Source: Verrucomicrobiia bacterium (lineage in GTDB: Bacteria > Verrucomicrobiota > Verrucomicrobiia > Limisphaerales > JAEYXS01). From it: DNA of 64,000 nucleotides. The stretch covers positions 62,001 to 126,000 of the forward strand of contig DASWYF010000028.1 of NCBI GenBank assembly GCA_036405135.1. Reading direction: 5' to 3'. A program made the position numbers and the translations under genes. This document shows positions 50,801 through 51,742 of this stretch, piece after piece. The notes beneath the pieces are model-generated. The model was not told the DNA's origin and made no database searches. It was given only the letters and a program-made list of their open reading frames with translations. Numbering within the stretch: position 1 is the stretch's first letter; every line of letters begins with the position of its first letter.

Positions 50801-51127
50801 TCAGAGGACGTGGTTGTCTTTTAGGGTTATCCAACGGTCGGAGCCATCGGGAGCTTGCATGCTGAGGGTGAAGATGTGGATTTTATCTTCGTAAGGGGTG
50901 ACGCGTGATTTCATTTGGGAGACGATATACAGGTCGATAGTAGATTCGCGGACGCCAGAGGTGAAGGTGCTGAGCAGTGCATCGAAGGCAGCGACGCGTT
51001 CGGGCATCGGAAGCGAGCTGTTTTGGTAAGTCGCGGTGAGATGGCGGCGTTTGGCGGTGAGGTAGTCAGGGGATTTGCAGGAGGTGGTGAGGCATATCAC
51101 CAAGAAAAGGAGAAGAGGTGTTTTCAT
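50801..51127 (-). CDS. small putative lipoprotein
   Basis: 108 residues. The leader MKTPLLLFLVICLTTSC ends in a lipobox-like LTTSC, so Cys17 would be lipidated. The mature part is about 90 residues, with AAFDALLSTFTSGVRESTIDLYIVSQMKS and ITLKDNHVL as landmarks. No family recognised. It lies 30 bases downstream of the signal-peptidase-like gene and is probably co-transcribed with it. Confidence 0.7.
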   Translation of the reverse strand: MKTPLLLFLVICLTTSCKSPDYLTAKRRHLTATYQNSSLPMPERVAAFDALLSTFTSGVRESTIDLYIVSQMKSRVTPYEDKIHIFTLSMQAPDGSDRWITLKDNHVL

Positions 51128-51157: not shown

Positions 51158-51742
51158 TCATTTCACCGGGCCGCTGCGGGATGACGGGTAGTAGCAGCGG
51201 AAGATGCGGCCTTTGATGTTTTTAGCGGGGAGAGGGCCCCAGAAACGGCTGTCGAGACTGTTGGTGGAGTTGTCGCCCAAGACGAAGTAGTGATCTGGTG
51301 GTACCGTGTAGTTTGTGGAGAGGTCGAGCATCTTGAACGCATTTCCGGGAGGCGGGAGGTGGAGGATTTCGCCTGTTGAATTGGTCAAGGGACGTAGTTG
51401 ATCGTTGATGTATAAATGTCCGTCTTGAATACGGATTTTGTCGCCGGGACTTCCGGCGAGGCGGTGAACAAACCAACCTTTGGGAAAAGGGAGGCCATCA
51501 GCGGTGTGGACCACGATATCGCCGAAGGCTGGCGGGTGGCGAAGATAGGAGATGCCTTCCATGAGGATGTGGTCTCCAGGAGAAACGGCGGGGGCCATGC
51601 CGCCGGTTGGAATTTTGAAAGGGCGGACCAAGCCGGTGATACGCAAGAGCAAGATGGTGGAGCCAATCAAGACCAGGGGGATGAGCAGCCAAATGGCTTT
51701 GCTGAGTTTGCGGCGGGGTAAAGGTGGTGGATTGGCGGTCAT
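51158..51742 (-). CDS. signal peptidase I homologue lacking Ser and Lys
   Basis: 194 residues. A single N-terminal membrane helix (about 17-35) precedes the peptidase S26 domain. Box E is canonical (LGDNSTNSLDSRFWGPLP). At the nucleophile box, however, PTGGMAP (45-51) has Gly48 where the catalytic Ser precedes Met, and the general-base box reads WFVHRLAGSPGD with His93 in place of Lys. His occurs there in ER-type enzymes, but those keep the Ser. The protein may be a non-catalytic or very unusual member. It precedes the small lipoprotein gene by 30 bases. Confidence 0.82.
   Translation of the reverse strand: MTANPPPLPRRKLSKAIWLLIPLVLIGSTILLLRITGLVRPFKIPTGGMAPAVSPGDHILMEGISYLRHPPAFGDIVVHTADGLPFPKGWFVHRLAGSPGDKIRIQDGHLYINDQLRPLTNSTGEILHLPPPGNAFKMLDLSTNYTVPPDHYFVLGDNSTNSLDSRFWGPLPAKNIKGRIFRCYYPSSRSGPVK

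What the first reader, a model, noticed from the sequence alone, without database searches (positions are those of the whole stretch)
51158..51742. Signal-peptidase-like protein with Gly and His at the catalytic Ser and Lys positions
The fold-defining boxes are present, including LGDNSTNSLDSRFWG, but PTGGM has Gly48 where the nucleophilic Ser should be, and FVHRLAG has His93 instead of Lys. Signal peptidase I needs Ser-Lys (or Ser-His in the ER type). Thr46 or another residue would have to act, or the protein is a pseudoprotease that binds signal peptides. It is tightly followed by a small lipoprotein gene.
Basis: partly seen in the sequence, partly recalled or inferred. Interest (0 to 1): 0.65.

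Follow-up and report, generated by a model that had tools for sequence, protein, structure and literature searches.

The report
Signal peptidase relative without catalytic residues
A bacterium, probably of the Verrucomicrobiota, has an extra relative of the enzyme that trims exported proteins in which both cutting residues are gone although the rest of the protein is kept, and most of its close relatives have lost one or both too, so it probably holds or guides peptides rather than cutting them.

Summary
The 194-aa protein is a clear peptidase S26 (signal peptidase I) homologue with Gly48 at the catalytic Ser and His93 at the catalytic Lys. The same genome has three other S26 genes, all Ser-Lys, so cleavage need not depend on this copy. 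The protein falls in a well-supported clade of 11 sequences (9 of 293 genomes searched in its order, one genome of another order, one further MAG). Two of the 11 keep Ser-Lys; seven others are full-length with A/K (3), A/Q, N/K, S/Q or G/H; two are truncated. In this clade the dyad columns vary like average columns, while most flanking motif residues are invariant. The LepB clade is 17 of 17 Ser-Lys in the same tree. Ser-less members show codon-level constraint much like LepB. The predicted fold matches LepB and, equally well, the inactive streptococcal SipA. Best reading: a membrane-anchored pseudo-signal-peptidase whose non-catalytic, probably peptide-binding role is kept by selection; the ligand is unknown. 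Thr46 as nucleophile and a conserved link to the adjacent lipoprotein gene are not supported. Patchy occurrence and two truncated copies show that the gene is dispensable in places, and decay remains the main rival.

The parts
51158..51742 (-). CDS of the S26 (signal-peptidase-I-like) protein, 194 aa, dyad positions Gly48/His93
51638..51700 (-). single predicted helix, residues 15-35, taken as the membrane anchor, after a basic N-terminus (RRK)
   Evidence: AlphaFold model H15-35; sequence; membrane role inferred
51590..51619 (-). Box B, residues 42-51 FKIPTGGMAP; Gly48 codon 51599-51601 (GGC) at the nucleophile position
51440..51475 (-). Box D, residues 90-101 WFVHRLAGSPGD; His93 codon 51464-51466 (CAC) at the general-base position
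51236..51289 (-). Box E, residues 152-169 YFVLGDNSTNSLDSRFWG, intact
50801..51127 (-). small lipoprotein-like ORF (108 aa, lipobox-like LTTSC, read by eye), 30 bp downstream; linkage not conserved, so not counted as a functional partner

Best explanation
A pseudo-signal-peptidase. Shown: an S26 protein with one predicted N-terminal helix and a complete S26 fold, in which both dyad residues are replaced; it sits in a Verrucomicrobiota subfamily where the dyad varies while the fold motifs stay fixed and codon-level constraint persists. Inferred: it cannot cleave; it is anchored in the inner membrane with its domain on the outer face; and it works by binding an extended peptide or exported protein in the old substrate groove, as a holder or adaptor, in the manner proposed for SipA. 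The ligand is not known.
For: Dyad absent. Three Ser-Lys S26 in the genome. Clade of 11 rows supported 100/99, 2 of 11 Ser-Lys, against 17 of 17 in the LepB clade of a tree into which every non-Ser-Lys row with enough filled columns was put. In the clade both dyad columns have entropy 1.69, more variable than 59% of columns, while R94, G97, P99, G100, G156, D157, N158, S159, D164, S165, R166, G169 and P172 are invariant and P45, M49 and P51 depart only in one truncated row; both dyad columns have entropy 0 in 21 LepB rows that I chose by type. Change at codon positions 1+2 relative to 3 is 0.45-0.52 among the three Ala/Lys members, against 0.42-0.59 among 10 LepB pairs. Model pLDDT 88.3; Z 14.8 to SipA 4n31 and 14.3 to E. 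coli LepB, a tie. At least one Ser-Lys S26 was read in each of the 11 genomes that carry a clade member. Precedent: SipA lacks both residues, showed no detectable peptidase activity, and changing the equivalent positions (D61A, D61S, D61A/K98A) had minimal effect on pilus polymerisation (PMC4049620, abstract and passages).
Against: No biochemical test. Two of the 11 clade members are N-terminally truncated without box B, and the gene is patchy: found in 9 of 293 genomes of the order, and no clade member in the other two genomes of its genus (76% and 93% complete). So it is dispensable, and decay is a serious rival. The window against five clade members gives codon ratios of 0.53-0.65, the upper part above the LepB range. 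No neighbour points to a ligand. Position 92, just before the base, varies (V, I, T, N, S, A, M) in the clade, so the groove may not be conserved. In SipA a groove mutation (V99R) also had minimal effect, so groove binding is unproved even there. Two members keep Ser-Lys and may be active.
Confidence: 0.62

Rival explanations
1. Slow decay: a redundant accessory signal peptidase that lost its dyad and is on the way to becoming a pseudogene, with no present function.
For: Patchy distribution, two truncated copies among 11, a Ser-Lys S26 read in each of the 11 genomes, window codon ratios up to 0.65.
Against: Seven members without Ser-Lys are full-length and open; the codon-position pattern among the Ala/Lys trio is like that of LepB; most motif residues are invariant. 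The AU test does not reject one old loss of Ser in the clade (p 0.272), in which case the Ser-less form has lasted across several families.
Confidence: 0.22
2. Active protease with another nucleophile: Thr46 or another Ser/Thr, with His93 as base.
For: All six full-length Ser-less clade members have Thr or Ser at position 46, and Ser or Thr at 65, and keep Ser159, Ser162 and Ser165.
Against: Position 46 is Thr or Ser in 17 of 18 Ser-bearing rows too, 65 in 8 of 18 (all three of the clade among them), 159 is Ser or Thr in 18 of 18, and 162 and 165 are Ser in 18 of 18, so nothing is gained to compensate. The base position is H, K or Q in the same Ser-less group, which does not fit one new mechanism. 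Ser88 of LepB is placed at the oxyanion hole (recalled).
Confidence: 0.05
3. Regulatory or dominant-negative partner of an active S26 enzyme (hetero-oligomer or decoy for pre-proteins).
For: Found together with at least one Ser-Lys S26 in each of the 11 genomes; motifs around the site kept.
Against: No second S26 gene in the stretches around the clade members that were compared; no interaction data. It overlaps with the best explanation and differs in the partner.
Confidence: 0.11

Closest known systems
Signal peptidase I (LepB; E. coli 1B12/1T7D; TIGR02227)
   Same: Fold and boxes B, D and E outside the dyad
   Different: Both dyad residues replaced; smaller than E. coli LepB, with 141 residues of the model aligned to a 226-residue chain
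SipA of Streptococcus pyogenes (4N31), inactive S26 homologue needed for pilus polymerisation (PMC4049620)
   Same: S26 fold without Ser and Lys; best structural match, tied with LepB
   Different: SipA has Asp/Gly and also changed the counterparts of Gly272 and Ser278; here these are kept (G156, S162). No pilin or sortase domain in the window neighbours scanned. SipA was not put in the tree
Lipobox-bearing S26 group of the same order (L026, L027, L029, L030, L032, L035)
   Same: Also 6 of 6 without Ser-Lys
   Different: Separate clade (100/97), with a lipobox-like N-terminus close to box B (read by eye)

Membership tests
Peptidase family S26 (by homology) | Profile match above curated cut-off | tested here: met
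   Pfam 116 bits vs 22.9; TIGR02227 114.6 vs 47
Peptidase family S26 (by homology) | S26 beta fold after an N-terminal helix | tested here: met
   pLDDT 88.3, helix 15-35; Z 14.3 to E. coli LepB over 141 residues, rmsd 2.6
Active type I signal peptidase | Catalytic Ser in box B | tested here: not met
   Gly48, GGC
Active type I signal peptidase | Lys general base (or His, ER type) paired with Ser | tested here: not met
   His93 without a Ser partner
Active type I signal peptidase | Pre-protein cleavage | not testable with these tools
   needs an assay
SipA-type pseudo-signal-peptidase | S26 fold with both dyad residues replaced | tested here: met
SipA-type pseudo-signal-peptidase | Encoded within a sortase/pilus cluster | tested here: not met
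   Pfam scan of seven neighbouring ORFs between 45788 and 56227: ABC transporter, sulfatase, PfkB kinase, HhH-GPD (endonuclease III type), GDSL lipase, DUF7133/cytochrome c, and the lipoprotein without a match; no sortase or pilin
SipA-type pseudo-signal-peptidase | Required for polymer assembly | not testable with these tools
   needs genetics

The most novel reading that the evidence does not exclude
Verrucomicrobiota carry a whole accessory branch of S26 proteins whose working role no longer needs catalysis: the dyad drifts while the peptide-binding fold is held, in at least two clades (membrane-anchored here, lipid-anchored in the other), giving a Gram-negative class of receptors for signal peptides or other exported peptides.
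Probability: 0.4. Interest if true: 0.65.

Novelty: new variant of a known kind. Interest (0 to 1): 0.45.

Why it matters
An inactive signal peptidase relative has been studied in detail in one Gram-positive pilus system (SipA; its authors note that other Gram-positive genomes encode similar proteins). Here a different phylum shows a subfamily in which the dyad is the loose part of an otherwise well-kept protein. That offers a natural set (S/K, A/K, S/Q, A/Q, N/K, G/H) for asking what the S26 fold does without cutting. It also warns that naming by the standard models does not imply activity: this protein scores far above both curated cut-offs.

Tried and rejected
Alternative nucleophile: no compensating residue found. 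Column 104 is Arg in 6 of 6 Ser-less rows and in 2 of 18 Ser-bearing ones; meaning unknown.

Conserved gene neighbourhood: 16 stretches compared (window, 12 loci of which 8 belong to the clade, and the three other S26 loci of the own genome; L055 and L133 were not included). Besides S26 itself no family was shared by more than three stretches. The shared ones are a sulfatase (window, L040, L003; 28-29% identity over the full length) and, between the window and L041, an ABC ATPase and a DUF7133/cytochrome c protein (25% and 22%, different order). Pfam shows these to be distant members of broad families, so I do not read them as synteny.

Lipoprotein as partner: 3 of 293 genomes including our own, not adjacent to S26 in the two others. 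One of those genomes (G158) does carry a clade member, on another contig.

Single-protein pattern scans in genome contigs and viral contigs found no confirmed relative; the alignment query in genome contigs did. One origin of Ser loss in the clade could not be rejected (AU p 0.272), so I do not claim several losses inside the clade. In the wider tree the best tree needs 10 changes of dyad state, and starred branches force 4. In the 24-row tree the Ser label is no more clustered than shuffled labels (166 of 500 as low). Row L017 has no true box B, so its letter at column 48 is an alignment filler. No scans of metagenomes were available, so no dN/dS on close pairs. Third positions are near saturation, so those ratios are rough. 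Coordinates of the model were not readable, so no distances in the site were measured.

Literature: searches in the open-access library found no paper on inactive S26 in Verrucomicrobia. One search returned only unrelated papers among the 25 listed of 1,005; one search listed 10 of 53; of these searches only listings were seen, apart from passages of PMC4049620 and PMC12984324.

Full report
Observation. The ORF at 51158-51742 (minus strand) encodes a 194-aa S26 protein. By alignment with E. coli LepB chains, Gly48 stands at Ser90 and His93 at Lys145. The codons are GGC and CAC. The other signature positions are kept: Pro45, Met49, Pro51, Arg94, Gly97, Pro99, Gly100 and box E.

Genome. The window lies in an assembly of 5.8 Mb in 52 contigs (97.8% complete). 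It holds three more S26 genes: a 397-aa form (PTGSM / YIKR) behind an ORF that reads as lepA (named from recall), a 241-aa form (PTGSM / LVKR) and a 175-aa form (GVSM / LLKR); all three are Ser-Lys.

Relatives. A search of 293 genomes of the same order with the window protein gave 66 matches at E <= 1e-12 in 56 genomes, the window included. I obtained all 66 (30 as loci, 36) and read the dyad: 50 are Ser-Lys and 16 are not. The 16 are the window (G/H), L010, L011, L012, L020 and L173 (A/K), L015 (A/Q), L019 and L032 (G/K), L026, L029, L030, L035 (A/M), L027 (S/A), and two truncated ones, L017 and L022. An alignment query in genome contigs found 352 relatives, of which the best 80 were returned, largely Omnitrophota and Atribacteria with Ser-Lys. 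Class and phylum searches (384 and 387 genomes, of which 30 and 3 loci were given) added one clade member, L133 (S/Q), and relatives outside the clade, among them L137 (S/Q) and L230 (A/K).

Tree. The tree held 78 of the 173 collected rows: the non-Ser-Lys rows except two fragments without a readable site, plus Ser-Lys rows that I chose, with the two dyad columns left out. The window protein falls in a clade of 11 with support 100/99. Its members are 2 S/K, 3 A/K, 1 A/Q, 1 S/Q, 1 N/K, 1 G/H and 2 truncated. The LepB clade is 17 of 17 S/K, and no dyad-less row fell into it. The mainly Omnitrophota and Atribacteria clade is 19 of 20. The best tree needs 10 changes of dyad state, and starred branches force 4. 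Inside the clade the order of events is not resolved: a single loss of Ser is not rejected (p-AU 0.272).

Constraint. In the clade both dyad columns have entropy 1.69, more variable than 59% of columns, whereas both have entropy 0 in 21 LepB rows chosen by type; most motif residues around them stay invariant. The ratio of change at codon positions 1+2 to position 3 is 0.45-0.52 among the Ala/Lys trio and 0.42-0.59 among 10 LepB pairs; other Ser-less pairs give 0.49-0.60, the window against five clade members 0.53-0.65, and the two S/K members 0.57. All lie well below the 1 expected without constraint, though the third positions are near saturation. Against function, two of the 11 members have lost the N-terminal part including box B, and the gene is scattered: 9 of 293 genomes, and no clade member in the two other genomes of the genus.

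Other S26 in the same genomes. Of the loci read for the clade's genomes, 22 rows other than the clade proteins themselves are all Ser-Lys, and with the own genome each of the 11 genomes has at least one; not every S26 match was read. Of 12 genomes with dyad-less S26 of other groups, each also has at least one Ser-Lys copy among the loci read.

Structure. AlphaFold2 with 36 sequences gives pLDDT 88.3, pTM 0.78, a helix at 15-35 and the S26 beta fold. The best matches by VIA-align are SipA 4n31 (Z 14.8, 138 residues, rmsd 3.8) and E. coli LepB (Z 14.3, 141 residues, rmsd 2.6), which count as tied; by Foldseek E-value LepB leads and SipA is third.

Mechanism. The likeliest reading is a pseudo-signal-peptidase held in the membrane that binds rather than cuts. 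SipA is the worked example: no Ser, no Lys, no detectable activity, cleft kept, and changes at the dead positions with minimal effect (PMC4049620, passages read; also described in PMC12984324, passages). In SipA the cleft mutation V99R also had minimal effect, so cleft binding is not proved even there. What is shown here is sequence, fold, company and constraint; loss of activity, topology and ligand are inferred.

Neighbours. The lipoprotein ORF 30 bp downstream has homologues in two other genomes: one in the same genus without a detected clade member, and one (G158) with a clade member on a different contig. Neither homologue is adjacent to S26, so the pairing is probably local. Seven neighbouring ORFs of the window scanned with Pfam show no sortase, pilin or secretion partner.

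Verdict. Real, and reasonably well supported as a pseudoenzyme; a known kind of thing in a new branch, with an unusually loose dyad. Function open.

Noticed in passing
L026, L027, L029, L030, L032, L035 (flanks L231-L236): A second group of small S26 proteins in the same order with a lipobox-like N-terminus (read by eye); 6 of 6 lack Ser-Lys (A/M four times, S/A, G/K); clade support 100/97; apart from S26 and overlapping frames, no neighbour family shared in the flanks compared.
   Followed up: partly
L020 (G111), L230 (G713), L019 (G083), L018 (G284): Longer S26 proteins with an extra hydrophobic N-terminal part; three of these four have Ala or Gly at the Ser position with Lys kept, L018 is Ser-Lys.
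   Followed up: partly
L173 (G075): A 393-aa S26 protein with PSKAM (Ala at Ser) and Lys kept; it falls outside the LepB clade, and the genome also has a Ser-Lys S26, L255.
   Followed up: partly
L017 (G130), L022 (G191): Clade members truncated at the N-terminus, without box B and with Ser at the Lys position: likely decaying copies.
   Followed up: yes
window 50801-51127; L225, L226: Small lipoprotein-like family of about 110 aa found in 3 of 293 genomes, no Pfam or NCBIfam match.
   Followed up: partly
L060 (Omnitrophota): S26 protein with Ser but Glu at the Lys position (ASDSM / IER), the only exception among 20 rows of its clade.
   Followed up: no
window residue 104 (codon 51431-51433): Arg in 6 of 6 full-length Ser-less clade members but in 2 of 18 Ser-bearing rows compared.
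   Followed up: no
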